Assembly: GCA_945643635.1 (NCBI GenBank)
Contig: CALZFC010000259.1
Location: forward strand, 423,501-487,500
Reading direction: 5' to 3'
From: Allodiplogaster sudhausi
Taxonomy: Eukaryota > Nematoda > Chromadorea > Rhabditida > Diplogasteridae
DNA length: 64,000 nucleotides
In this document: piece by piece, positions 12,662 through 54,412 of the stretch
Layout of the letters: the number at the start of each line of letters is the position of its first letter
Numbering within the stretch: position 1 is the first letter of the stretch
Notes under the pieces: model-generated
What the model was told of the DNA's origin: nothing
Databases searched by the model: none
Seen by the model: the letters and a program-made list of their open reading frames with translations, nothing else
Made by a program: the position numbers and the translations under genes

Positions 12662-15600
12662 AAAAGAGAAAGAGAGAAAGAGAGGGAGAGAGAGAGAGAG
12701 AGAGAAGGGGTAAGAGTTGACATGTTAGGGTAAGATAGAGTGTGAGTTAAAGAACGAAAATGGTGACGCTTCCGTTACCATGGCGCAGTTCTCAGAATTC
12801 CAATGACTAAATCGGTGGAAAAGACGTCGACGAAGTTGCAAGTCTAAACTGATCCTCTGTCTCTTCCTTTCTCTGTCTCTCTCTCTGTCTCTCGTTCTCC
12901 TTTTTTTTCGCTTCTCTAACTTCCAATCCGAGTATAAAAGGCGCTGCAGAATGCTCTAGCAACACACCGCTTTAAAACATTTATATGGTACTTTCAGATT
13001 CTCTTTTTATTTTTATTTTCAAATATTCCTAATTTTCATAATATTCATGGGTATGTATGATAAACTTTTTTTGTTCGGCCATAATCATCATTCCGTTATC
13101 ATCATCATTCAAAAATTGCAGGTTTATTCATAATTAGGCTGTTAAACTTATGTATGTACCTAACCATAAGGATCGAATATTGCTAGATATTTATGAATAT
13201 TGTCGCTCATTTGATTTAATTTATGCTAGATAGGAAAATACCATCGGCGATTGACATTTCGGCCATCTTTCACTTTCATTCTCCTCTCATTCTTTGAATG
13301 GTTCTCAATTTGATCAATCGACATTTCTCCAAATCTTTCGATATTTTCTCAATGGATAGATATCCTGAAGCTTGCGCGATATTTTATCGAATGGGTATCT
13401 TTGAATGGACAATACCCCAGCTCCATTTCACTTCCCTCTGCCCGCAGATGAGTAACTTCGCCGTCGGCCTTTCGTCGGCCGCCTCGATCGCGGCCGTCCT
13501 CGTGGCTGTCGTCTGGTCGGCCTCCATCGTCAACGATCTGACTTCTCTTCAGCAAGAGGTCACCGACGAGATGCGCGACTTCAGGGTGAGTCTAATTAGT
13601 AGTGGATTACAAACTTTTTTTTTCTCATCTTAACTTTCACCAGAAATTTAGGCAGTACTTTCATGAGACTCTCTCTCTCTTTCTCTCTCTCTCTCCCTCT
13701 CTCTTTCTCTCTAAATCACACATCTCACCCTTGTGTCACGCGAAAAGACGCGAATTCAACAATGCGGATTTTGGGCTCATTCCAAGAATTAAAGGGGCTG
13801 TATCCGGCCGGTAATTCAAGGCGTTAATGAATAGGCACATACATACATATGGGAACATGAAATAATTAATTGACACCATAAAGGCGCTCGCTGACGACAC
13901 GTGGCACCAGCTGCTCGAGCAGCACGTCAACCCCTCTGGCTCCTCCGACGCGCCGCCCAACTTCGCCTCGCTCTTCACTCGCGGCAAGCGCCACTCGGGC
14001 GGCTCTTGCAACTGCGGCCCGTCGTCTCGCGGCTGCCCGGCCGGACCGCCAGGCCCGCCTGGCTCACCCGGGCAGCGCGGCAACGACGGCCACCCGGGCG
14101 AGCCTGGCCGAGGCGGCGCCTCGGGCATCTCGCTCGCCGTCACGCACGACATCCCCGGCGGCTGCATCCGCTGCCCGCCGGGCCCGCCGGGCCAGCCGGG
14201 CGCGCCCGGCTTCCCGGGCCCCGCCGGCCAACCCGGCGGCCAGGGCAACCCCGGTCCCGACGGCGCTCCCGGCTCGCCCGGCCCGCAGGGAGAGCCTGGC
14301 TCACCAGGCGAGCCTGGCCGTCCTGGCAATGCTGGCGCACCCGGCAATCCTGGCTCGGACGCTGTCGCATTCACGCCCGGCAACGACGGCCAGCCCGGTG
14401 GACCGGGAGAGCCTGGACGCCAGGGAGCGCCCGGCAACCCGGGCCAGGACGGAAGGCCCGGAAACGATGGAAGACCCGGCGAGCAGGGACGCCCTGGCAA
14501 CCCGGGCCGCGACGGACAGCCCGGATCGCAGGGAGAGAACGGCGCCGATGGCGCGCCTGGCTCCGATGCTGCGTACTGCCCTTGCCCTCGGCGTGGAGGC
14601 TCTTCGGGTTACACTGGCGCGAGCACCTCCTACTCGGCGACTGGAAGCTCCGCCTACACGTCCGGAAGCTCTGGGTATTCGTCCACCGGCAGCCCCTCTT
14701 ACGCTCCACGAGGCTACAACACTGGTGGATACCGCCGCTACCACAGCTAGACTTGACTCTCACTTGAACATCCTTCGAATTCACTCACTCTTCTCGAAAA
14801 TTGATGAGAACTTACGAATAAAAATGCTTGGATACCCTATTTTCAACTCATGTTTACTTATATACATATATACTAGAAGAAGAACCAAGAAGCTCTCAAG
14901 CTCGAGTGCGAGTGGTAAAGCTTGCAAAGAAATCATTAATGAAAAGAAAAACACAGCAGTGGACACAAATCATTTATAGTATATTTCTAATTGTAAGAGG
15001 TGAAATAAAGTTGTCCCCTCTCAAAACCACCTTCTGATCTGTGCAGGCCATTCCCGATGACTTTCTCGGCCGAGTCATCGATCCGTGGCATTGACGTCTT
15101 CGTGTTTCGCACGGCGGCCGACGCGCTCGACACTACGGTATGTCGAGGGTATGGACCGTTAGAACATTAGATATTACACACTTCTCTTCAATTGTGAAAC
15201 GAGGGATTTAATGCCCCGGTGGTTATAAAGGCATGCAATACAATATTATAAATTTGAACTCATATTTTCCCCGAGTCTGCCCACTGCATCCTCACTGACT
15301 GCCGACTCTCCAAACACTTTTGTGATGACTGCTGTCTGGGGAAGCAGACGGCGGAGGGGCTGCTGCTCATGCCGCCTGGATTCAACCGGGCCAGTCGACT
15401 GGCAGGTGGGGCTCTCTCTCTCTTACTCTCTCCCTCCCTCTCTCTCTCTCTTGCGCACTCTCTCTCGCTCCCTCTCTCTCGCTCTGTATCTGTTCTCTTT
15501 GCCTCACACCCAATCTCTCTCGCTCTCTTCTTTTTCTCTCGACCTATCACTCGCTTTCTCACAAACTCTTTTTTCTCGCCCTCTAATTTCGTATTTTTAC

Positions 15601-17614
15601 TCTCCATTCTCTCTCTCTCTTCTCTCGTCTTGCACAATGGTCGGGAAATTAGATCACGATTACGTTTTTCCCCCCAAAAGCGCGAATTCAAAAGTGAGTT
15701 TTTGAACTCCTTTAAGGTCGAACAAAGGAAGTGCCCTTGCTGGTGTTCCTCTCCGCCCCTCATATGCTCGGCGTGCCCAGCGAGGTCTGGCGACCCCTCG
15801 TCGGCCTCGCGCCCCGACCGGGCGTGCACGAATTGCTCGAGTTGCACCTTACGCCGGTTACTGTAGACACTACATATTTTAGCTATTATTTATCTCATCA
15901 ATTAACAACAGCAAAAAAATTAGTAGAAAATTTAATGGATAAATTGATAAAGTTTGATTTTGTTTTTTTTCTTTATGTGCACACACACTTTTGCTAGAAG
16001 CCCAATTTTCACACCCGGCTGTTTTAATTGAGCCTGTTAGGTTAAGAACCAACGGTGTTTTCGATGAATTGCTCCAATCTCCTGGCTTCCTTCTTCCAAA
16101 AAAAAACGGTTGGATCCATGTGCTGTTTGTGGGAACGTTGGCCAGGTCGGCACCGTGCTCTCCTTTAATTCACCCGGTGGTTTTAATTGGTACCTATGTA
16201 TTAGGCTAAGTACCAGCAACATTTTTGATGGATTTCACCGCTTCGAAATTTCAAAAGAGTTTGCTAGATAATATTATGTGATGTTTGTTGGAAAGTTGTC
16301 AAGGAAAGCACCCGCACTCCCTGCGTTCCCGGACCGGGCCCAGGCTGGCCATGAACATCCTTAGAGATCTAGCTATGGCCCGCGGAGTTAATTTTGTGAA
16401 TTGAGTAACAAATTTCAAAACGAGCAAGAAATGGTTGGCATGGGCCTATATTCGAGGTGTCAGAATAAGAGACGGTGTCAATATAAAAATTAGGGACTGG
16501 GTCTCGATTCTAGGTGCCAGAATAAGCGATGAGAGATTGCAGGTGCTCGGCACAACTCTGCGCGCCCGCGCCAGTAGCCAGATCAACATGCCACTCGGGC
16601 CGTCCCAAGAGTTTACGTCAGAGTTTTTATCATCTTGTAGTCTAAATAAAATTGCTACTATTTGATGCACGACTAGGATTTCTCCTAACAGCAGAGTCGA
16701 AAGGCCAATTAATTTCAAATGCGCTTATATTTTCAATGAAATCCACAGCATTGTAGCTACTATAATGAAAAAGAAGAGAAACAAATGCTTTCGCTAGAAT
16801 GAAAGCACTGAAATTGCTTCGGAGCATTTACGCTACATTCAAGTGCCGGCTTGAAAGTATCTCTCGGCGTAACTTCCTTTTCTGTGTTGTGTAAACGTAC
16901 ACCCTTTTACTGATGTCTCCTTTCTCCTCATGGTCAGCCAGCTCAGCCGCCTGCGCCCGACAATGTTTCCTGTGCTGTGGTTACGAGTCGCCGTGGATGC
17001 GCGGCCGAAAGTGCTCACAAAAGTTTGGGTGAGGCGCACTTTTAACATTCAACGATCAGAAGAAAATCAGAATAATCACTGAACAATAATTAATGAAGGT
17101 TTGAATTGCCGCGCGTTCACCCTGCTAATTGTCTCTCTCTCTCTCACTCTCTGTCTCTCAATTTCTATCTCTCTCACTATCGTTTTTCTGCTACCACCCT
17201 CTTTTTCTTTTCTTCTTCTTCTTGCTGATATAAAATGCATAGTCTGTTCGAGAAATTGATTATTGATTTATTTAATACTTGATTGATTAAAAAAAATTCA
17301 ATAATCACAAATATATTTGATTTATTCATGTGATAAGCGATTAAATTAAATATTAATTTTGATAATATAGTAATTTTATTCATTTAATACGTGATTTAAT
17401 CAAATAATAATTTTAATAATAATAATAAATAGTCGTCCTCCCCCTCTGCATCTTGCTCTGCTCTTTTCTCTTCCCCTCCGCCGCCTCTCTCCTCCTCTTT
17501 CTCTCCTGGCAGCGTGCCAAGAAGCAGAAGAGCCTCTCGCTCTTCTTCGCCAAGCACAGCATTCTGCCCGCGTTGCACGCTCCCTTGAGTGCGAAGAAGA
17601 AGAGTATTTCTTAG
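7985..17614 (+). CDS. CD36/scavenger receptor class B family protein (gene 2), rearranged
   Basis: Thirteen exons give a near full-length CD36 protein: 7985-8157 (Met, cytoplasmic head, first membrane helix and IIRSQL), about 8602-8749 ([13 protein letters not shown], then EVGPYFYR), 9072-9222 (VKEH to PNMAY), 9542-9636, 10067-10238 ([13 protein letters not shown]), 11014-11155 ([14 protein letters not shown]), 11784-11856, 15047-15137 ([10 protein letters not shown]), 15273-15405 (Cys-rich), 15717-15856 ([14 protein letters not shown]), 16543-16616, 16938-17028 ([10 protein letters not shown]) and 17513-17614 (TAG). Most junctions are GT-AG and in phase. Exceptions: the first intron does not join in phase with the acceptor I can see, and the Cys-rich exon has lost its 5' part and acceptor at a breakpoint (15269). 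No second membrane helix lies between 17028 and the Lys-rich C-terminus. Identical 3' exons recur inverted at 28-30 kb. Probably a broken or chimeric gene; family call secure. Confidence 0.75.
8761..8925. repeat. (CT)n tract in CD36 intron
   Basis: CT-rich microsatellite immediately 3' of the donor at 8750. Confidence 0.85.
9251..9320. repeat. Fold-back: 26 bp perfect inverted repeat, 18 nt loop
   Basis: 9251-9276 is the exact reverse complement of 9295-9320. It begins 28 bp after a CD36 exon donor (9222) and shows no terminator or miRNA context. Confidence 0.9.
9988..10066. repeat. 23-24 bp minisatellite abutting an exon
   Basis: About 3.3 tandem copies of a unit containing gttgccagatttaatcttgg. 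The last, partial copy ends in gccag and supplies the splice acceptor for the CD36 exon starting at 10067. Confidence 0.8.
11150..11345. repeat. (GA)n tract
   Basis: Purine-rich microsatellite starting at the donor of the CD36 exon that ends at 11155. Confidence 0.85.
11599..11710 (+). repeat. Inverted repeat, left copy (112 bp)
   Basis: Matches the reverse complement of 15158-15269 with one visible mismatch. The pair encloses two CD36 exons and the collagen gene. Confidence 0.92.
12596..12712. repeat. (GA)n tract upstream of collagen promoter
   Basis: Purine microsatellite 220 bp before the TATA box. A (CT)n tract at 12398-12422 and a C-run near 12341-12352 lie just upstream. GA repeats can act as promoter elements; a role here is inferred. 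Confidence 0.75.
12933..12940 (+). promoter_or_regulatory. TATA box of the collagen gene
   Basis: TATAAAAG followed by GC-rich sequence, on the collagen strand, 508 bp before its start codon. That distance requires a 5' leader or 5'UTR intron, consistent with the acceptor abutting the ATG. Confidence 0.5.
13448..14750 (+). CDS. Nematode cuticle collagen
   Basis: Exon 1 is 13448-13585 and exon 2 13884-14750 (TAG), in phase, 334 residues. Residues 1-46 are the hydrophobic nematode cuticle collagen N-terminal domain with a signal-anchor ([10 protein letters not shown]). RGKR at 79-82 is a furin/subtilisin-type processing site. Cys88/90, Cys140/143 and Cys278/280 flank Gly-X-Y blocks, as in the C. 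elegans col families; the Gly-X-Y stretch has short interruptions. The Tyr/Ser/Gly-rich tail suits di-tyrosine cross-linking. The secreted trimer is a cuticle component. The gene lies inside an intron (11857-15046) of a CD36-family gene on the same strand and has its own TATA box and polyadenylation signal. A degenerate copy of its 3' end is at 47 kb. GC content is far above its surroundings, as expected of Gly/Pro codons. Long ORFs in its other frames are shadows. Confidence 0.97.
14817..14822 (+). terminator. Polyadenylation signal of collagen
   Basis: AATAAA 67 bp after the stop codon. Another AATAAA lies near 15003. Confidence 0.6.
15158..15269 (-). repeat. Inverted repeat, right copy (112 bp)
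   Basis: Reverse complement of 11599-11710. Its outer end falls exactly where the Cys-rich CD36 exon loses its 5' part, so it marks a rearrangement junction. Confidence 0.92.
15411..15640. repeat. (CT)n-rich tract after CD36 Cys-rich exon
   Basis: Repeated almost unchanged at 20452-20690 and, inverted, at about 29650-29880. ORFs here read as Ser/Leu or Arg/Glu repeats only. Confidence 0.9.
15985..16400 (+). repeat. Dispersed repeat in CD36 introns
   Basis: Units contain gttttaattgagcctgttag and a following block with ccatgtgctgtttgtgggaa then ttcccggacc. Related copies: 28990-29285 (inverted), about 48980-49330 and 54590-54850. I find no stable ORF. It may be ancestral intron sequence spread with the CD36 duplications or an old transposon. 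Confidence 0.65.
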
Positions 17615-19925: not shown

Positions 19926-20250
19926 TTTCATTGTTCATTGAATCGTTAAAGTGTAGTAATCCTTTAAAAAAAATTTAATAGTAAGCAGGTGGATTACATC
20001 CTTTCAATTTTTATAATAATAATACTGCATGGATTCATTTCCGTGATCGACGTGCCGTTGCATTCATTCTTATCATAGTTTCTGTCAATACACAACTCAT
20101 CCTCTTCTTTCCTGTTTTCTTTTCTTTTTTGCTAGCCTTTACTGGAAAGAAAAAAAAGAAACTCTTGGAAAGGAATCGAATCTAAAAAGGCCCTAACAAA
20201 GTAAAAGAAACTCTAAAAATAAATAGTAAAAGAAATAACAATATAACCCT

Positions 20251-20447
20251 CTTTATGTTCCTCTTGAGGACATCGCGCCCGGCTGGGGTGAGTGTCCCTC
20301 TTCTCGCAGTTACGAGTCTGCCCACTGCATCCTCACTGACTGCCGACTCTCCAAGCACTTTTGGGATGACTGTTGTCTGGGGAAGCAGACGGCGGAGGGG
20401 CTGCTGCTCATGCCGCCTGGATTCAACCGGTGCCAGTCGACTGGCAG
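20251..20447 (+). pseudogene. Extra copy of CD36 Cys-rich exon
   Basis: Reads YVPLEDIAPGWGECPSS, then [14 protein letters not shown] and [11 protein letters not shown], i.e. the full exon whose truncated copy is at 15273-15405. One base is inserted after the FNR codons relative to that copy, which changes the phase at the donor. No neighbouring CD36 exons follow in order here, so it is a displaced duplicate. Confidence 0.75.
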
Positions 20448-21143
20448 GTGGTGCTCTCTCTCTCTCTCTCTCTTTCTCTCTCCCTCCCTCTCTCTCTCTC
20501 TCTTTCGCACTCTCTCTCGCTCCCTCTCTCTCGCTCTGTATCTGTTCTCTTTGCCTCACACCCAATCTCTCTCGCTCTCTTCTTTTTCTCTCGACCTATC
20601 ACTCGCTTTCTCACAAACTCTTTTTTCTCGCCCTCTAATTTCGTATTTTTACTCTCCATTCTCTCTCTCTCTCTCTCTCTCTCTCGTCTTGCACAATGGT
20701 CGGGAAATTAGATCACGATTACGTTTTTCCCCCAAAAAGCGCGAATTCAAAAGTGAGTTTTTGAACTCCTTTAAGGTCGAATAAAGGAAGTGCCCTTGCT
20801 GGTCAAATACATATCTTTCTATGCTTTCTTCTTCTACAAAAATTCGGTTTCCTCGCACCAAATTGCCCTCGTGGGGCTAGTTTCGGTAAAAAAAAAACAA
20901 TTTTGGAAAAAATTTCATGGCCTTGCCGAAGGAGTACCGTAATAACTAAAATATCTTTTGTTCTTTGGACAGTCGCTGTTGCACTTCACGGCGTAGAAGG
21001 GCAGGCGATATTGTCAAAGTTTTAACTATGCTTTCTTCATCTACATATTGTTGGTACCTGAACTTGATGTAATAAAAAAATAATTTCACTATTAAATATG
21101 TTTTTTTAATATATTTCAGACATAATCTGGCTCGGCGCTAAAC

Positions 21144-27972: not shown

Positions 27973-30150
27973 CTAAGAAATACTCTTCTTCTTCGCACTC
28001 AAGGGAGCGTGCAACGCGGGCAGAATGCTGTGCTTGGCGAAGAAGAGCGAGAGGCTCTTCTGCTTCTTGGCACGCTGCCAGGAGAGAAAGAGGAGGAGAG
28101 AGGCGGCGGAGAGGAAAAGAAGAGAGCAGAGCAAGATGCAGAGGGGGAGGACGACGGTGACCAACTATTTATTATTATTATTAAAATTATTATTTGATTA
28201 AATCACGTATTAAATGAATAAATTTACTATATTATCAAAATTAATATTTAATTTTATCGCTTATCACATGAATAAATCAAATATATTTGTGATTATTGAA
28301 TTTTTTTTAATCAATCAAGTATTAAATAAATCAATAATCAATTTCTCGAACAGACTATGCATTTTATATCAGCAAGAAGAAGAAGAAAAGAAAAAGAGGG
28401 TGGTAGCAGAAAAACGATAGTGAGAGAGATAGAAATTGAGAGACAGAGAGTGAGAGAGAGAGAGACAATTAGCAGGGTGAACGCGCGGCAATTCAAACCT
28501 TCATTAATTATTGTTCAGTGATTATTCTGATTTTCTTCTGATCGTTGAATGTTAAAAGTGCGCCTCACCCAAACTTTTGTGAGCACTTTCGGCCGCGCAT
28601 CCACGGCGACTCGTAACCACAGCACAGGAAACATTGTCGGGCGCAGGCGGCTGAGCTGGCTGACCATGAGGAGAAAGGAGACATCAGTAAAAGGGTGTAC
28701 GTTTACACAACACAGAAAAGGAAGTTACGCCGAGAGATACTTTCAAGCCGGCACTTGAATGTAGCGTAAATGCTCCGAAGCAATTTCAGTGCTTTCATTC
28801 TAGCGAAAGCATTTGTTTCTCTTCTTTTTCATTATAGTAGCTACAATGCTGTGGATTTCATTGAAAATATAAGCGCATTTGAAATTAATTGGCCTTTCGA
28901 CTCTGCTGTTAGGAGAAATCCTAGTCGTGCATCAAATAGTAGCAATTTTATTTAGACTACAAGATGATAAAAACTCTGACGTAAACTCTTGGGACAACAA
29001 ACATCACATAATATTATCTAGTAAACTCTTTTGAAATTTCGAAATCCATCAAAAATGTTGCTGGTACTTAGCCTAATACATAGGTACCAATTAAAACCAC
29101 CGGGTGAATTAAAGGAGAGCACGGTGCCGACCTGGCCAACGTTCCCACAAACAGCACATGGATCCAACCGTTTTTTTTTTGGAAGAAGGAAGCCAGGAGA
29201 TTGGAGCAATTCATCGAAAACACCGTTGGTTCTTAACCTAACAGGCTCAATTAAAACAGCCGGGTGTGAAAATTGGGCTTCTAGCAAAATTGCGTGTGCA
29301 CCTAAAGAAAAAAAACAAAATCAAACTTTATCAATTTATCCATTTAATTTTCTACTAATTTTTTTGCTGTTGTTAATTGATGAGATAAATAATAGCTTAA
29401 ATATGTAGTGTCTGCAGTAACCGGCGTAACGTGCAACTCGAGCAATTCGTGCACGCCCGGTCGGGGCGCGAGGCCGACGAGGGGTCGCCAGACCTCGCTG
29501 GGCACGCCGAGCATATGAGGGGCGGAGAGGAACACCAGCAAGGGCACTTCCTTTATTCGACCTTAAAGGAGTTCAAACTCACTTTTGAATTCGCGCTTTT
29601 TGGGGGAAAAACGTAATCGTGATCTAATTTCCCGACCATTGTGCAAGACGAGAGAGAGAGAGAGAGAGAGAGAGAATGGAGAGTAAAAATACGAAATTAG
29701 AGGGCGAGAAAAAAGAGTTTGTGAGAAAGCGAGTGATAGGTCGAGAGAAAAAGAAGAGAGCGAGAGAGATTGGGTGTGAGGCAAAGAGAACAGATACAGA
29801 GCGAGAGAGAGGGAGCGAGAGAGAGTGCGAAAGAGAGAGAGAGAGGGAGGGAGAGAGCAAGAGAGAGAGAGAGAGCCCCACCTGCCAGTCGACTGGCACC
29901 GGTTGAATCCAGGCGGCATGAGCAGCAGCCCCTCCGCCGTCTGCTTCCCCAGACAACAGTCATCACAAAAGTGCTTGGAGAGTCGGCAGTCAGTGAGGAT
30001 GCAGTGGGCAGACTCGGGCTGGTAACTGCGAGAAGAGGGACACTCACCCCAGCCGGGCGCGATGTCCTCAAGAGGAACATAAAGAGGGTTATATTGTTAT
30101 TTCTTTTACTATTTATTTTTAGAGTTTCTTTTACTTTGTTAGGGCCTTTT
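27973..30150 (-). pseudogene. Inverted copy of CD36 gene 2, 3' half
   Basis: Contains the Cys-rich exon (about 30150-29890), 29422-29561 ([14 protein letters not shown] to ELHVTP), 28569-28659 ([10 protein letters not shown]) and 27973-28074 (Lys-rich end with TAG). A roughly 320 bp deletion at about 28990 leaves only the last bases of the exon carrying [11 protein letters not shown], so the chain cannot be spliced in order. The N-terminal half is absent. Arms are nearly identical, implying recent formation or gene conversion. Confidence 0.8.
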
Positions 30151-41094: not shown

Positions 41095-41567
41095 ACCCCA
41101 CCACATATAAATTCTTACTAGGAATGCGAACCACCTGTTGCGCTGATACAATATTCTGTTATTTCGTTTAAAGGAGGTATCCGACGAAAAATTAATGTCT
41201 CGTAATATCTGTTTCCCAGGTCAGAAATGGCCTAAAAGATCGATTAGAAGTGGTCCCGTTCTCTGAAAGTAAGTATTATTGTTGATATAAAGCATTTACG
41301 TCCGGAATACGGTAGATTTTCTCTCTGATCTTGTGATCTTTGAACTCCGAGTTCACTCACAAGCGAAAGCGAGACAGAGATTCGCACCTCACTGGCCTGG
41401 TCAAAGGAGTGCAAAGAACGACCAAATCGGTGCCAATCAATCTGACACTCTGGAGAAAAGACACACGATCACACACATTTGATATAACAATGGTTTTTGC
41501 TGAGTAACCGTTTTCATTCTTCAAATCCAAATATGTACATACATTCATTGCATTTCATGCTTTTCCG

Positions 41568-42078
41568 ATGGATAACACCGTTCATCCGTCGCAATTTGAT
41601 CCGACCGTCGAACAAGTGCAGCGAACTCGTGAGCGTGTTCGCGTTCGTCTACTGGAGAATCAGCGGGCGTCGAAGATCGTCGCGGCCAACACGCCATCAG
41701 AGATACTCCGATGCAGATGCGGTCGCTGCGGAGTCGTCTCGGAATACAGCAGTTCCTATTGCTGCCAGACGGCGCTGTTACATCCCGAGAAGCTGCTCCG
41801 CACAGGAAGGGAAGTCAGTGACTTCCTGGCTGGGCTTGTCGGTGACGAAGTCGTCGACTGTGTCACTTCGTGCAACCGCTTCAAATCGCAGTTTCTGGAT
41901 GACAATAGCGCTCGCATCGCGGCGCGGCTCTACGAACTCTACGAAGACAGTACGACGCCGATCAGAGACACGCCAAGCAACAAGTAAGTAAACAACGAAG
42001 AGAAACTATTACAGAGAGAGAGAGAGAGTGAGAGGTAGAGAGTGAGAGGGGAAATAGAGAAGAAAGAGAGAGAAGGAA

Positions 42079-42115
<37 letters not shown>

Positions 42116-42478
42116 GAGAGAAATAGAGAGAGAGACAAAGGAGAGAGAGAGAGAGAGAGAGAGAGGAAAGAGAGAAGAAATAGAGAGAGAGAGACAAAGG
42201 AGAGAGAGAGAGAGAGAGAGAGCAAGAAAGAGGCGATAGCCAGAAGTGAAATGGAGAGGAAGAAAGATATAGACAACCAAAGTAAGCTAAGTGCTATGTA
42301 AAAAATCTTCAGATCTATGCGATACGGCATGTACAGATATCTTGCCACGGAAATTTGGAATAGAGCGGGCAGGAGCAACAGGATTGAGTTCCCTTCTTGC
42401 ATCGTGACCGCCATTCGCGAAAAGTGGCCAGAATCAGACGGTATCTACACCGGCTTTTTTGAAGTTGATGTTGAATAA
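41568..42478 (+). CDS. Cys-rich P2X7-cytosolic-domain-like protein of the Kolobok element
   Basis: Exon 41568-41980 joins exon 42313-42478 in phase (stop TAA), giving about 193 residues. It has a dense Cys cluster (CRCGRCGVVS at residues 49-58, YCCQ at 64-67, then VTSCNRFKSQFLDD), followed across the intron by MRYGMYRYLATEIWNR, NRIEFPSCIVTAIRE and FP/WPESDGIYTGF. This order resembles the zinc-binding P2X purinoceptor 7-like cytoplasmic domain found in many invertebrate transposon proteins. Probably nuclear, with a DNA- or protein-binding role in transposition; no catalytic residues. The intron holds a long (GA)n repeat. It is upstream of, and separate from, the transposase gene. Exon 1 could also start at an earlier Met, but this ATG gives the usual N-terminus. 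Confidence 0.7.
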
Positions 42479-42628
42479 TTTGGCGATAAACACGTACCTG
42501 CTGTTTCCCATGCTCCAATCTAACGAAGTGTGAAGCAAATTGCGGTCAACTTGTGCCCTTCGGCAAGTAATTTCCCGCCAAGAAAGTGATATGTGGGATG
42601 ACATTATAGGATAAGGTCAGTGTCAGCC

Positions 42629-45410
42629 ATGGTTCGTTTCTTCTGTTGCGTAGTATGCGCACGGAATAGAATAGAATATGAAATGGCTAGGTTCACTATA
42701 ATTCCCCTGAAGAGACGACTATGGATTCGCGAGATCTGCCAAGGAAACCCCTCCCAGGAGCCTCTGCTCTCCCATAATCTTTCCCTCTACCTGGATCCAT
42801 ATCTCTGCCACGTTCACTTCAACAGCAGCAACTTCCAACGAACTGTAAATGGACGTCTAGTTCTCGTCGGTTCGGCTATGCCTTTACCCTGCGAAGTCAT
42901 AACAATCCAGATAAGTCATCATTTTTATACATACAATTTTATAGTCATCATTTAAATACATATACAAACACCAGCATCGGGTTTACCGTGAGCGTACCGT
43001 GCTGGCGTGCCAAAGGGACACATAAAAACTACATAAAAAAGGACAGAAAACTTTAGGGACCGTCTGGCTCTCGAAGTAGGGCAGGCAGCGATAGCCAGCT
43101 TCTTCTCACGGCCGGGACGTCACCGACACCTCCCCGAATCCTTCCAACACCAGCTCGGCTACGACATCTCCTCACAGCTCCGTCTCCGCTCGCGCGCCCT
43201 TCCCGACCGATTCCTGCAATGCCGAGACTATCGAATGAGAGTGCTCCACCAGGGCGATTAGTTAGCAGTAAATCAACTATGCTTGCCCTGGCCTCTCCAA
43301 CTCAGCCACCCACTCTGACTCCCATATACAAAGGGGAATCTAGCGAACAAGTGACGGAGGTAAGTAATAAGGAGTAAAATGTAAACTGAATGAAAACTAT
43401 TTCATCTTTAGGATGAATGCGAGTGCGAATCGGATGACGTCTTCACACAGGAAACAAGCACCTGCTGCATCCAGTCTCCTGCAAAATGCGGTATTGTAGA
43501 CCTCGAACTGCTAGCAGATCTTTTTCGGGACTGTATAAAATGCGCCAAGGAGGACGTTTGTGATGTTAGTTTTCTTTAGAATCTAAAGAAATTTTAGAAT
43601 TTTACTTTAAAAAAATAAAAATATTTTTTTTAGACCATTTCTGCGCTGTTTTGAAGGTTGTTATAAAAACGGAGGGAGCAGTAATACAAGTGGAATCGAC
43701 ATGTCGAATCAACCGAGACCACCAACGGAAATGGGCAAGCAGCCGCAAAGTCCCAACTTCTGGAGGTTCACCCAAGGAGAAGCTATATGCTGTCTCACTC
43801 GACATAGTAGGCGCAGTGCTATCAACGTCTCATGGATACGGGGTACTATCGTGTACTACTAAATATGACGTGTAAAGGAATTTTTTTAGGCACTTGCTCC
43901 TACCATGAATGCATTGGGGGTTGCGATGATGTCGAAATCATCATTCTACGACATCCGCAATTATTACTATATTCAAGCCATCGACAACGTCTTCGAGCGA
44001 GACCATAAGTTTTGGACCTACTTTCTGACAAGATCAAGGTTTGGACACTAATTGAAAAAGTGCAAATTATTATAGAATTATCATAATAACTATCAGGGTG
44101 ATCCTATTCATATATGTGGGGATGGGGCCTACGACAGTAGGGGATACTGCGCCCTTATCTGTCGCTACGAACTAATGGCTCTACCGTACAACACAGTAGT
44201 CCAGTACAGCGTCACTGACAGAAGCGAAGCAGGTAATGATTAAATATAAAAATAAAGAAGAATCAGAATGGTAATCTGATTCAAGCATCCTCTCCTGCGA
44301 TGGAGCCGCTGGGTCTTCAGAAGGCACTTGACGTCTTGCTTGGAGAGCTTGGAGGAGCGGGAACGAATCCAGTTGCCACCATCACGACGGACCGAAGTCG
44401 ATCCGTGGCCGCTCTTCTTCGTCCCTACAATATCAAGCACATGAATGATTTGTGGCATATTGTCCGAAATCACACAAAAACCATTCTTGAGGTTCGCTAT
44501 ATTCAAAAAGAAAAAAAAAATTTTGTTTGTTTGAGATGTCTAAGAAGAGGAAATACGATGGTCTTCGTGACTGGGCAAGAAGCTTGATCAACCATGTCTA
44601 CTACTCGATAACCACGTCAGGGGGAGATGGTGAACTAGCACGACAGAAATACCTCGCAACACTGAATCACTTGGATGGAATACATCAGTGGCCGAAGGTA
44701 TAAAATTTAGACTAAGCGAAGGAATAAACAAAGATTTAGAGCGCTCGCTTCCCAACATTCACGAGCTGCACGCATGGCCCACTCCCACAAGAGGATAAAA
44801 AGCTTCCCAAAGTTGCAAGAGAATGGGTCGAAGAGTATTTCGAAGGACAAGCCGATGACATTGCTCGGACTTCACCATTTTTGACCACATCGCAGGTAAG
44901 CTTGCTTACAAAATAAGCCTAATGAATGAGAGCTAGTTTAGGTGGAATCTTTCCATGGATTCTGTGCCCGATTCTGCCCAAAGGATCACTATTTTACGAA
45001 AGAAGGCACAAATCTTCGAATGAAGATTGCGATCATTGCATGGAATGGCAGAAAGCGCGAATTTGTCGATGGGCAAATTAATCAAGTCGGAACAAACGGG
45101 TATATAACAAGACGAGGAAGATGTACAGGGACCAAATCGTCTACAGCCCGGCTTCTTACAACTATAGGTATGAAACTTTGTAAAACAATTAGCAATATAA
45201 CAACCACTTCAATGGAGGCAGGAGATAATAGCCGAAGCTCACCTCATTCGCCAATCAATGGCACATGCCCCTTCTCGGAAGGAATGCGCTGACGGTAATG
45301 AAGATGAGAGCGACGCCGAGTTGGGGCCAGCTGATGACTTCTCACAGCTTCTCGACAACGAGGACGAGGACCCTGATGAAGATGACGAAGTTTACAGCGA
45401 AGAGTTTTAG
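42629..45410 (+). pseudogene. THAP-DDE transposase of the Kolobok element, apparently frameshifted
   Basis: Exons 42629-42844, 43057-43359, 43412-43564, 43657-43842, 43890-44038, 44097-44232, 44286-44491, 44536-44697, 44740-44895, 44942-about 45166 and about 45219-45410. Residues 6-64 form a THAP zinc finger: C-x2-C, Pro26, Trp32, then C-x2-H in LCHVHF, with 49 residues between the pairs. Then come LFRDCIKCAKED, IQVESTC, GDGAYDSRGY (first Asp), ATITTDRS (second Asp), MNDLWHIVRNH, LNHLDGIHQWPK and VESFHGFCARFCPK (likely catalytic Glu), ending in an acidic tail, TAG at 45408. Two apparent breaks: the junction 44038/44097 is one base out of phase just before the first catalytic Asp, and a TA-repeat near 45095 shifts the frame away from KMYRDQIVYS. 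Otherwise all junctions fit. Confidence 0.8.
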
Positions 45411-46279
45411 TTGAGAATGCGAATATCCTTGACAATATATATAGTTATATTAGTTTATGTATAACAAGTCTACAAATTCAGTTCAATACTATTGTTTCCT
45501 TTCGTAAGAAAATACATTATTCATGCACGGTTATATTGCAATAACTAGCAGTTTCGAATAAAGCCATAATACTTTGCTGATTCTTCGTATTAAAGTAAGA
45601 ATATGTCAAAGGAGAAACCGTCCCTGCAGTTGCCAGTATCGAATCTGCGGAAGTTGTGCGATGTCCTGTTCGCAGAATGGAACGTTTCCAGTTGTCAGAA
45701 ACTGAAAAATTCATCACAAGCCGACACTGCATTCAAAGTTTGAAAAATATAACATATTAGGCAAGAATTAATGGAAAAGAAATGTTGCAATGAAATATAA
45801 AGAATACTTAAAGCTGCAGTTATTTTAGCCTTCATCTAAAACGAATAACATTCATTATAGCATAAAAAGACTGATCTAAACTATCCATTGGCGGATGAGC
45901 GATGCCCAGACTGACCCGACATACAAGCCTTTAAGAAAATAACGTTATTGCACGACCAGGTCTAAGGTAGAGAAATGATTGTAATGTGTTCAGCGAGAAA
46001 TACACGCCAAATGGTTATATTTAGGAGAAACGAATTACCAAAAAGTACATTATTATAATACAAACTAAGTAAGAAAATACGCAAATGACGCTCATTGCAT
46101 CACTGCAAGTGTCATGAAAATGCGCACTTTCTAGTTTGAAGTTTAAAATTTGAAAAAATTTGAAATTTTTGTAGGGCATTCAGTTAGGGCGTTTCCAGTT
46201 GGGAGTTTTTCTTAGTTTGAAATGTACTTTTATTAGATACGGTATTTGTTTCGTCGGATACTTCCTTTAAAAAAAATGA

Positions 46280-52488: not shown

Positions 52489-54412
52489 TTAATACACTGG
52501 CCAGTGGCGGAGAGGAACGAGGAGTGCGGTGTCATGATAGTATGCATCAAGTGGGTGGGCATTCACAAGCGATTCAAATTCGACGATAGAGAACTGTTGC
52601 AAGGGTTGAATGTCGAAACAGTTAATATCATCACGCCAGGAGAGAGTCTCGCAATTCTGAACAACAATACGCCAGGCATCATTAGAATGGAAGAAGAATC
52701 GGACAAGAGCAAATGAGGGTTGAGCACCTTTTGACATTGAAGTAATCAAGACATCACGGTCACTGAAGGACATTCCACACCAGGTCATACGGTGGCACAA
52801 CTGTTCGGGGTGCGCGCACTTTAGGGCCCGTAACAGTTCAACCAACGGGGAATCATTCGGAAGTTGGTCGTAATCAATGGGCACAGTAGCAGGGGTGGCA
52901 GAAGGTGAGAACTTTGCGCGCTGGTTAGCCAAATGCAGCTGCAGGTGGTGGATGGTGCTATAAGGCATATTACGGTAGTTCTTGGACGTGTAAGACAAAG
53001 TCTTGACTGAAGCATTGACTTGCTCATAGTACATCGTCCATGACAGAACAGGCGGGCCATTATTGCGCACGAATTCAGCATAATGCAGTAAATGATGGCA
53101 TTTTACAGTGAACGACACCGAATCATCAATTGCAAGGCACGACTTAACAGACACGATATAGTCATGAACGGCATTCTCAAGGGCCGGGATGTCATCATGA
53201 GTGAAGTGCGGCTGCATAAGAAACAGAATGGCACGGACGAGCAACAAGAAAGACTTCCATTCAAGTGAAGAGGTATCAACAGATGCATGCAGGGCAAGTG
53301 GGAGTACTCTCATGAGAGTATAGGTTTGGGATGCGCGCTGCTTCGCAGTACAGCCGGACAAGACTTGATTGCTGAACGGAGTGGGACGCGAGGAGGAGTC
53401 TTGAGACCCGAACGGGAGAATGCTGACTAGTGCATTTACTTTGCAAACGCGCACGCCGCTTCTATTTGCAAAGTTCAGGAGTCTCACGATTGCCCTTTGG
53501 CACTCCCCTTCAAACAGATCGTGCATCAAATCTAGACCGTAGTCACTGAACATGTCGTATTCGGGGAATTTCAAGAGAGGGTGACATGGCTACACAATGA
53601 ACAATCAGGGAACTCTGAGCTGTGAGCCGTGCACAAGCGGCACGTGTATCCAACTCCAAAGTTCTTCGCAAGGCCTCGCAGCTCGTTTTGGGCCTTGTTG
53701 TCCGCGAGCAGCGAGAGGAGGACCGGCTGGTAGGCGACGCCGTCGACATGGATGCCTCCGGACTCCCGAATGGTAGTTAGGTCCTTCTAAAAGAAGAATT
53801 AACTTTATTAGTACAACCGAAAAAAAAATTATGCTTGAAAGTTACAAAACAAATCAAACTTGCTAACCAGGAGGACTTCCAGCACAGGTCGGAATTGGTG
53901 CGAGCTGTGGTCACTGGCGTAGGCGACTGAGAAGACGTGTTTGGCTGCTTGCGAAGAGCTCATCCGAAGGGGCAGGCCGGTCAGCTTGACGAGGAAGATG
54001 GCCAACGAGTTGCCGCTAGCCTTCGTACCGAGCGCTCCTCCAGGCGACATGTCGTCGAAGTAGAGGAGAAACGGGAGGTCCACCATTCCGGCCGTTCCTT
54101 GCTAAACGAAATCAATCAATATAATTACAAAGCGCATTCTTAAATGTGAAAAGATTCAGCGTTAAAGAGATAAAGTAATGTTACTCACCCTCTTGCCATG
54201 TAGCGCTCCGTCGAGGTGGCAGCAGAGATCACTCCGGTGGACGCCGTCAAACGCGCCATGTTTCTTCGCAAAGCTAATCGCTTCCCTCAGAACATGGCGC
54301 AGCGGAACGGTGTAGTAGAGCTCGGGCCGTTGTACTCTCTCGGCTTCTCCTTGTGCGTTCCGTTGAGTCAACTGTAGCACACCCATCGTGTGAGTCCATA
54401 TCTCCGCTACGT
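52489..54412 (-). pseudogene. CACTA/EnSpm-like transposase, 5' truncated
   Basis: Exons about 54412-54189, 54101-53868 (LPFLLYFDDMSPGGALGTKA, LTGLPLRM), then 53786-52489 (LLADNKAQNELRGLAKNF, TCRLCTAH, DLMHDLFEGECQ, KCHHLLHYAEF, GPPVLSWTMYYEQ). The order FDD-GSKA, D-N-x-N, Cys pair, MHDLLEG, KxHHLLHY, GP-W-M-E is that of TNP2-like RNase-H-fold transposases related to EnSpm/CACTA. The frame changes near 53574 (a frameshift, or a roughly 50 nt intron); otherwise 361 codons run open to the stop. The N-terminus is absent: the coding sequence runs into a 150 bp-arm fold-back at 54263-54581. Family name moderately sure; fold and element type more so. Confidence 0.7.

What the first reader, a model, noticed from the sequence alone, without database searches (positions are those of the whole stretch)
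41172..46266. Kolobok-type transposon with two genes: P2X7-like Cys protein plus THAP-DDE transposase
Seen: TTAA duplication, 18 bp TIR with one mismatch, a spliced Cys-rich ORF, and a separate spliced gene starting with a THAP finger and carrying D, D and E motifs in order. Known: Kolobok elements use TTAA sites and THAP-linked transposases. Inferred: the Cys-rich ORF is a conserved partner. This two-gene arrangement in a nematode, with some 11 small introns, may not have been described.
Basis: partly seen in the sequence, partly recalled or inferred. Interest (0 to 1): 0.75.

Follow-up and report, generated by a model that had tools for sequence, protein, structure and literature searches.

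The report
Two-gene Kolobok transposon in a nematode
This is a 5.1-kb cut-and-paste jumping gene of the already described Kolobok (Kol0/KolX) type in a roundworm, present in many copies; the copy in the window has a broken transposase gene, and shorter relatives carry pieces of a ribosomal-protein gene.

Summary
Window 41172-46266 is a transposon with 18-bp inverted ends (one mismatch), TTAA on both sides, a two-exon Cys-rich gene and an 11-exon THAP/DDE transposase gene. The 352-Mb genome holds further copies in two subfamilies (about 99% and 85% identical to it); 13 of 13 elements with both ends located are TTAA-flanked, and 4 of 7 insertions searched have related empty sites. Between subfamilies both genes are under purifying selection (dN/dS about 0.09-0.11 and 0.19-0.23). 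One distant family keeps the same gene order. The Cys protein passes Pfam P2RX7_C and keeps the seven cysteines of KolX. The host is a nematode (1,821 exact SL1 sequences). What is added is the worm host, many short introns and a KolX radiation. The window copy's transposase is broken by a 7-bp and a 1-bp deletion, and its first intron begins AT; four other copies read open. In passing: six 2-kb relatives carry pieces of ribosomal protein L19.

The parts
41168..41171 (.). left TTAA target-site duplication
41172..41189 (+). left 18-bp terminal inverted repeat AGGAGGTATCCGACGAAA
   Evidence: shared by other copies
41568..41983 (+). KolX (P2RX7_C / ballast) gene, exon 1
   Evidence: donor GTAAGT identical in the 12 copies shown
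41984..42312 (+). KolX intron, GT-AG, GA-rich, 329 nt
   Evidence: poorly conserved between subfamilies
42313..42478 (+). KolX exon 2 with stop
42629..42910 (+). transposase exon 1, THAP-like zinc finger
   Evidence: Pfam THAP below its cut-off
43057..43359 (+). transposase exon 2, proline-rich linker; follows intron 1 (AT...AG in this copy)
43412..43564 (+). transposase exon 3
43657..43842 (+). transposase exon 4
43890..44038 (+). transposase exon 5; 7-bp deletion relative to the 8 other copies that retain this stretch
44097..44232 (+). transposase exon 6, first catalytic D (GDG)
44286..44491 (+). transposase exon 7, second D (TTDR) and DxxH (DLWH)
44536..44697 (+). transposase exon 8
44740..44895 (+). 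transposase exon 9
44942..45167 (+). transposase exon 10, catalytic E (VESFH); 1-bp deletion relative to the 11 other copies shown
45218..45411 (+). transposase exon 11, acidic tail and stop
46249..46266 (-). right 18-bp terminal inverted repeat (reads AGGAAGTATCCGACGAAA on the minus strand)
46267..46270 (.). right TTAA target-site duplication

Best explanation
A Kol0-type Kolobok DNA transposon in a nematode. Inferred from the family: the transposase binds the inverted ends (the THAP finger being the likely DNA-binding part), cuts with a DDE centre and pastes the element into TTAA, which becomes duplicated. KolX, a small zinc-coordinating ballast-type protein, is a co-encoded partner whose biochemical role is unknown; my best guess is a cofactor of the transposition complex. 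Shown: the ends, TTAA on both sides, copies, related empty sites, both genes in fixed order, purifying selection on both between subfamilies. The window copy cannot make the full transposase itself and could move only with enzyme from other copies.
For: TIR and TTAA. Copies. Single-TTAA related sites spanning the junction for 4 of the 7 insertions whose complete joined flanks were searched (13 were joined). KolX: Pfam P2RX7_C 43.1 bits, cut-off 23.5; 3 of 3 members of alignment A2 match it; P2X7 chains of solved structures at E 0.0019-0.033. Transposase: 3 fish proteins at E 1e-29 to 1e-34, all with PF20700 and one also with THAP, with GDG, TTDR and DxWH invariant and the E shared in 3 of 4 rows, the fourth having a gap there. 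dN/dS 0.09-0.11 for the transposase (3 A-B pairs, dS 0.44-0.45) and 0.19-0.23 for KolX (5 pairs, dS 0.33). Same two genes in the same order, with TTAA-AGGAG upstream, in a distant family, L072.
Against: Pfam THAP is below its cut-off (20.6 and 16.4 against 23.9 bits) and so is PF20700 (25.4 against 26.5). No DDE tree against reference Kol0 elements was made. Splicing is inferred; no RNA. Within-subfamily dN/dS is noisy and not low (0.40-2.34, few changes). One copy (L010) has lost one KolX cysteine while its transposase reads open, and the L072 KolX lacks another. For 3 of 7 insertions searched, the window's among them, no empty site was found. Whether KolX generally sits next to a transposase in this genome was not counted.
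Confidence: 0.93

Rival explanations
1. The Cys-rich gene is an unrelated host gene caught between the ends of a transposase-only Kolobok.
For: Stand-alone ballast-domain proteins have been reported as host proteins in animals (PMC7016195, passages).
Against: It lies at the same place in copies of both subfamilies; a KolX search gives 146 exon matches in the genome from 98% down to about 27% identity (the weakest may not all be KolX); one distant family has KolX followed by THAP-DDE in the same order.
Confidence: 0.03
2. A piggyBac or other TTAA-targeting element, not Kolobok.
For: [quoted passage not shown] The DxxH motif and the PF20700 (Mutator-like) match are not exclusive to Kolobok.
Against: Termini are 5'-AG...CT-3' (RR/YY) and start AGGRR; no piggyBac model among Pfam matches at E up to 1; nearest proteins carry PF20700, one with THAP; the piggyBac KolX-like proteins are said to lack most of the seven cysteines.
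Confidence: 0.02
3. The family is dead and the similar copies are segmental duplicates rather than transpositions.
For: Of 11 copies with the transposase aligned, 4 keep the open 719-aa frame; 5 of 6 subfamily A copies carry AT at the intron 1 donor.
Against: Copies lie in different flanks, 13 of 13 with both ends located have TTAA at both, related empty sites exist, and copies within a subfamily are 98.6-99.7% alike.
Confidence: 0.04

Closest known systems
Kol0 lineage of Kolobok (KolX plus DDD/E transposase; Kojima and Bao 2022, PMC9587614, passages read)
   Same: TTAA duplication, RR/YY termini, DDD/E transposase with C/DxxH, second gene KolX with P2X7 ballast similarity and seven cysteines
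   Different: [quoted passage not shown] Kolobok in general is listed for nematodes); 10 introns in the transposase, mostly 42-58 nt, and one in KolX. The passages I read give no intron numbers
XKol / T2-MITE Kolobok elements of Xenopus (PMC6004289, passages read)
   Same: TTAA, terminal AGGRR, THAP plus DDE transposase, accompanying short non-autonomous copies
   Different: The Xenopus transposases were looked for and listed as single long reading frames (about 2.2-2.4 kb after trimming in the rows seen); this one is split into 11 exons; TIR sequence differs
Ballast (ZCD) proteins of Haemonchus contortus and Ancylostoma caninum (PMC7016195, passages read)
   Same: Nematode proteins with the same cysteine module
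   Different: Reported as proteins, not as part of a transposon; whether they are KolX genes was not tested here

Membership tests
Kolobok superfamily | 4-bp TTAA target-site duplication | tested here: met
   13 of 13 elements with both ends located; one single-ended copy, L022, has TGAA; empty sites for 4 of 7 searched
Kolobok superfamily | termini 5'-RR ... YY-3' | tested here: met
   AG...CT; definition from PMC9587614
Kolobok superfamily | D-D-E catalytic residues with C/DxxH between second D and E (shared with hAT, P, MuDR and Dada) | tested here: met
   D369, D441, D460-x-x-H463 (numbering of copy L010) invariant with three fish homologues; E582 (counted by hand) in 3 of 4 rows, the fourth has a gap. 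Taking D369 as the first catalytic D is recalled
Kolobok superfamily | THAP finger (C2CH, P/W/F, AVPTIF box) | tested here: inconclusive
   Pfam THAP E 0.00077, 20.6 of 23.9 bits for the exon 1 frame, 16.4 bits for the 719-aa protein; C2CH and an AMPLPCE stretch seen by eye only
Kolobok superfamily | H2CH zinc motif of the transposase | not tested
   named in PMC6004289; pattern not compared
Kol0 lineage | second gene KolX with P2X7 ballast similarity | tested here: met
   Pfam P2RX7_C above cut-off
Kol0 lineage | seven zinc-coordinating cysteines | tested here: met
   C49, C51, C54, C65, C66, C98 invariant in 4 of 4 rows; the PSC/PAC/PVC cysteine in 3 of 4, L072 having PSY. Copy L010 has lost C98. 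Zinc binding itself not tested
Kol0 lineage | DDE core groups with Kol0 families in a tree | not testable with these tools
   reference Repbase sequences and the paper's supplements were not available
piggyBac | piggyBac transposase domain | tested here: not met
   Pfam gave PF20700, DUF7229, THAP and DUF3000 at E up to 1, no piggyBac model

The most novel reading that the evidence does not exclude
In this nematode TTAA-Kolobok elements have captured intron-containing pieces of the host rpl19 gene, perhaps more than once, and spread them (behaviour like the Pack-TYPE elements of plants), riding on the KolX/THAP transposase studied here; and KolX families have radiated so far in this genome that the stand-alone nematode ballast proteins in databases are probably transposon genes.
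Probability: 0.45. Interest if true: 0.45.

Novelty: new member of a known kind. Interest (0 to 1): 0.27.

Why it matters
It puts a complete two-gene Kol0-type element into a nematode and points to a genome with many KolX genes, copies whose genes read open, and empty sites, useful for testing what KolX does. The origin of the P2X7 receptor tail from KolX is already in print; this adds diversity for that comparison rather than a new idea.

Tried and rejected
KolX single-sequence protein search: none of 275 candidates reached E 0.01; an alignment of three KolX then found one protein, from the ribbon worm Lineus longissimus. 18S rRNA to name the host: not answered in 5 tries, so the species stays unknown; a paper search for '351.8 Mb' with nematode found nothing. 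Genome-wide transposase search to count KolX-transposase neighbours: not answered in 12 tries; only one distant locus (L072) was read instead. Ribosomal L19 Pfam search of the genome: not answered. Structure prediction and fold search were not run. Considered and rejected: unrelated host gene for the Cys frame; piggyBac; segmental duplication.

Full report
What is there. Window 41172-46266 is bounded by 18-bp inverted ends that differ at one position and by TTAA on each side. Between them on the plus strand lie a two-exon gene for a 193-aa Cys-rich protein and an 11-exon gene whose open form in other copies is 719 aa. The exon borders were chosen by comparing copies: exons align, introns differ in length and sequence.

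Copies. The window lies in a 351.8-Mb genome of 382 contigs. A DNA search with 5.2 kb gave 70 matching pieces (40 of 1,765 candidates scored, so a lower bound). I fetched 20 stretches. Eleven of them were aligned with the window as elements (12 rows); L019, L021, L022 and L023-L028 were left out of that alignment. Subfamily A (L009-L013) is 98.7-99.2% identical to the window; subfamily B (L014-L018, L020) is 83.6-85.1% identical to it; five B copies compared with each other (L020 left out) are 98.6-99.7% alike. Of the window and the 20 stretches, 13 had both ends of one element located, and 13 of 13 have TTAA outside both: six full-length (window, L010, L014, L015, L017, L018), two internally shortened (L020, L021) and five 2-kb ones (L023-L027). 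The other eight are cut, decayed or nested: seven have a usable end next to TTAA, and L022 has an end next to TGAA. Of 7 insertions whose complete joined flanks were searched, 4 (L010, L017, L018, L020) have uninterrupted relatives elsewhere with a single TTAA, at 84-97% identity; the window, L014 and L015 had none among the candidates scored (40 of 773 scored).

State of the genes. Transposase: of 11 copies, four (L010, L014, L017, L018) read open over 719 aa; the window copy does not (7-bp deletion in exon 5, 1-bp deletion in exon 10). The intron 1 donor is GT in 5 of 5 B copies that keep it, AT in 5 of 6 A copies (window included) and GC in the sixth. That AT-donor copies nevertheless multiplied fits supply of transposase by others; this is inference. 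KolX: of 12 copies, six read the full 193 aa (window included), three more are open with small length differences (L013, L014, L018), one lacks its start (L011), and two are broken (L016, L020).

What the genes are. The Cys protein matches Pfam P2RX7_C at 43.1 bits, cut-off 23.5, and four P2X7 sequences of solved structures weakly, E 0.0019-0.033, besides one unrelated protein at E 0.36. Rump et al. 2020 (PMC7016195, passages) define three cysteine clusters; CxCxxC and CC are present, the cysteine of the second cluster follows only after a longer spacer, and PSC...IR..WP....YTG is close to, not identical with, the third. In an alignment with a Lineus 'P2X7-like' protein found by profile search six cysteines are invariant in 4 of 4 rows and the seventh is in 3 of 4. 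The transposase's relatives are three fish proteins carrying PF20700, one with THAP as well (only 7,994 candidates were scored). GDG, TTDR and DxWH are invariant and the E is shared in 3 of 4 rows. THAP and PF20700 themselves stay below Pfam cut-offs in our protein.

Is the Cys gene a partner? Between subfamilies dN/dS is 0.09-0.11 for the transposase (3 pairs) and 0.19-0.23 for KolX (5 pairs), at dS 0.33-0.45. Within subfamilies it is noisy, 0.40-2.34 with few changes. A KolX protein search of the genome gave 146 exon matches at E up to 0.001, from 98% down to about 27% identity; the weakest may not all be KolX. One distant family (L072, KolX exon 1 50%, exon 2 64% identical) was read: KolX, then THAP, then DDE exons, same strand and order, with TTAA-AGGAG upstream; its right end was not in the stretch read. 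The count over all families could not be made, since the transposase search did not complete.

Host. The SL1 22-mer (recalled) occurs 1,188 + 633 times exactly, with 0 + 0 for the reversed control; the window also holds a collagen reading frame. I take it for a nematode; the species is not determined.

How it works. Known for Kolobok (PMC9587614 and PMC6004289, passages) and inferred here: the transposase acts on the ends and inserts at TTAA. I saw no function for KolX in the passages read; a structural zinc cofactor of the transposition complex is my guess, about 0.5.

What is known. [quoted passage not shown] Kolobok in general is listed for nematodes too. Rump et al. report ballast proteins in two nematodes without mention of transposons (no 'transpos' in the text). 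A paper search for KolX, Kol0, Kolobok and nematode (at least 2 terms) listed 13 papers, of which only PMC9587614 holds KolX or Kol0; a survey of plant-parasitic nematodes mentions Kolobok-T2 and Kolobok-H only by name (PMC11118728, passages). So the finding is a new member of a known lineage, in a host group that these passages do not name for it.

By-product. Six 2-kb elements (L023-L028; both ends located in five), 98.6-99.3% alike, share about 260-284 bp of the left and 210-360 bp of the right end with the window element. Their middle carries, on the minus strand, pieces of ribosomal protein L19: in L023, Pfam Ribosomal_L19e_C at 61.3 bits against 25, and the N-terminal domain at 21.1, below 25. 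Of 16 fetched places with DNA similarity (L052-L067), 15 match the recalled worm L19 protein; two (L052, L053) cover it without stops and look like intact genes, the others are partial or decayed. A repeat pair, L056 and L057, 97.7% identical over 2,747 bp and bounded by TTAA-AGGAG with only weakly matching ends, also carries a decayed rpl19. One paper search on gene capture (listing only, 15 of 22 shown) showed plant Pack-TYPE work and no title on Kolobok gene capture in worms.

Noticed in passing
L023-L028 (G000 C242:3521736, C16:5974345, C264:515522, C15:332230, C117:886442, C4:2114709): Six near-identical 2-kb non-autonomous relatives of the element carry intron-containing pieces of the host ribosomal protein L19 gene in reverse orientation (protein pieces checked in L023).
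   Followed up: partly
L056 and L057: Another TTAA-AGGAG-bounded repeat, 2 copies 97.7% identical over 2,747 bp, also carries a decayed rpl19; eleven more of the 16 loci fetched hold rpl19 fragments.
   Followed up: partly
window 42911 and copies L009-L013: Intron 1 of the transposase begins AT in 5 of 6 subfamily A copies and GC in the sixth, while subfamily B has GT: an element that multiplied with an odd or dead donor site.
   Followed up: partly
L068-L071: Very short copies, about 450 bp in L069 and L071 where both ends were found, with the same kind of TIR and TTAA, MITE-like.
   Followed up: no
window 13866-14747: Open frame with a collagen triple-helix match (Pfam Collagen 75.9 bits), perhaps a cuticle collagen.
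   Followed up: no
window 52492-53589, minus strand: 366-residue open frame (contains DLMHDLFEGECQRAI) without a Pfam match at E 0.01; perhaps another mobile-element protein.
   Followed up: no
window 15258-15863 (+), 20239-20781 (+), 29566-30096 (-): A frame reading [15 protein letters not shown]...[20 protein letters not shown] recurs in the window, an unexamined repeat family.
   Followed up: no
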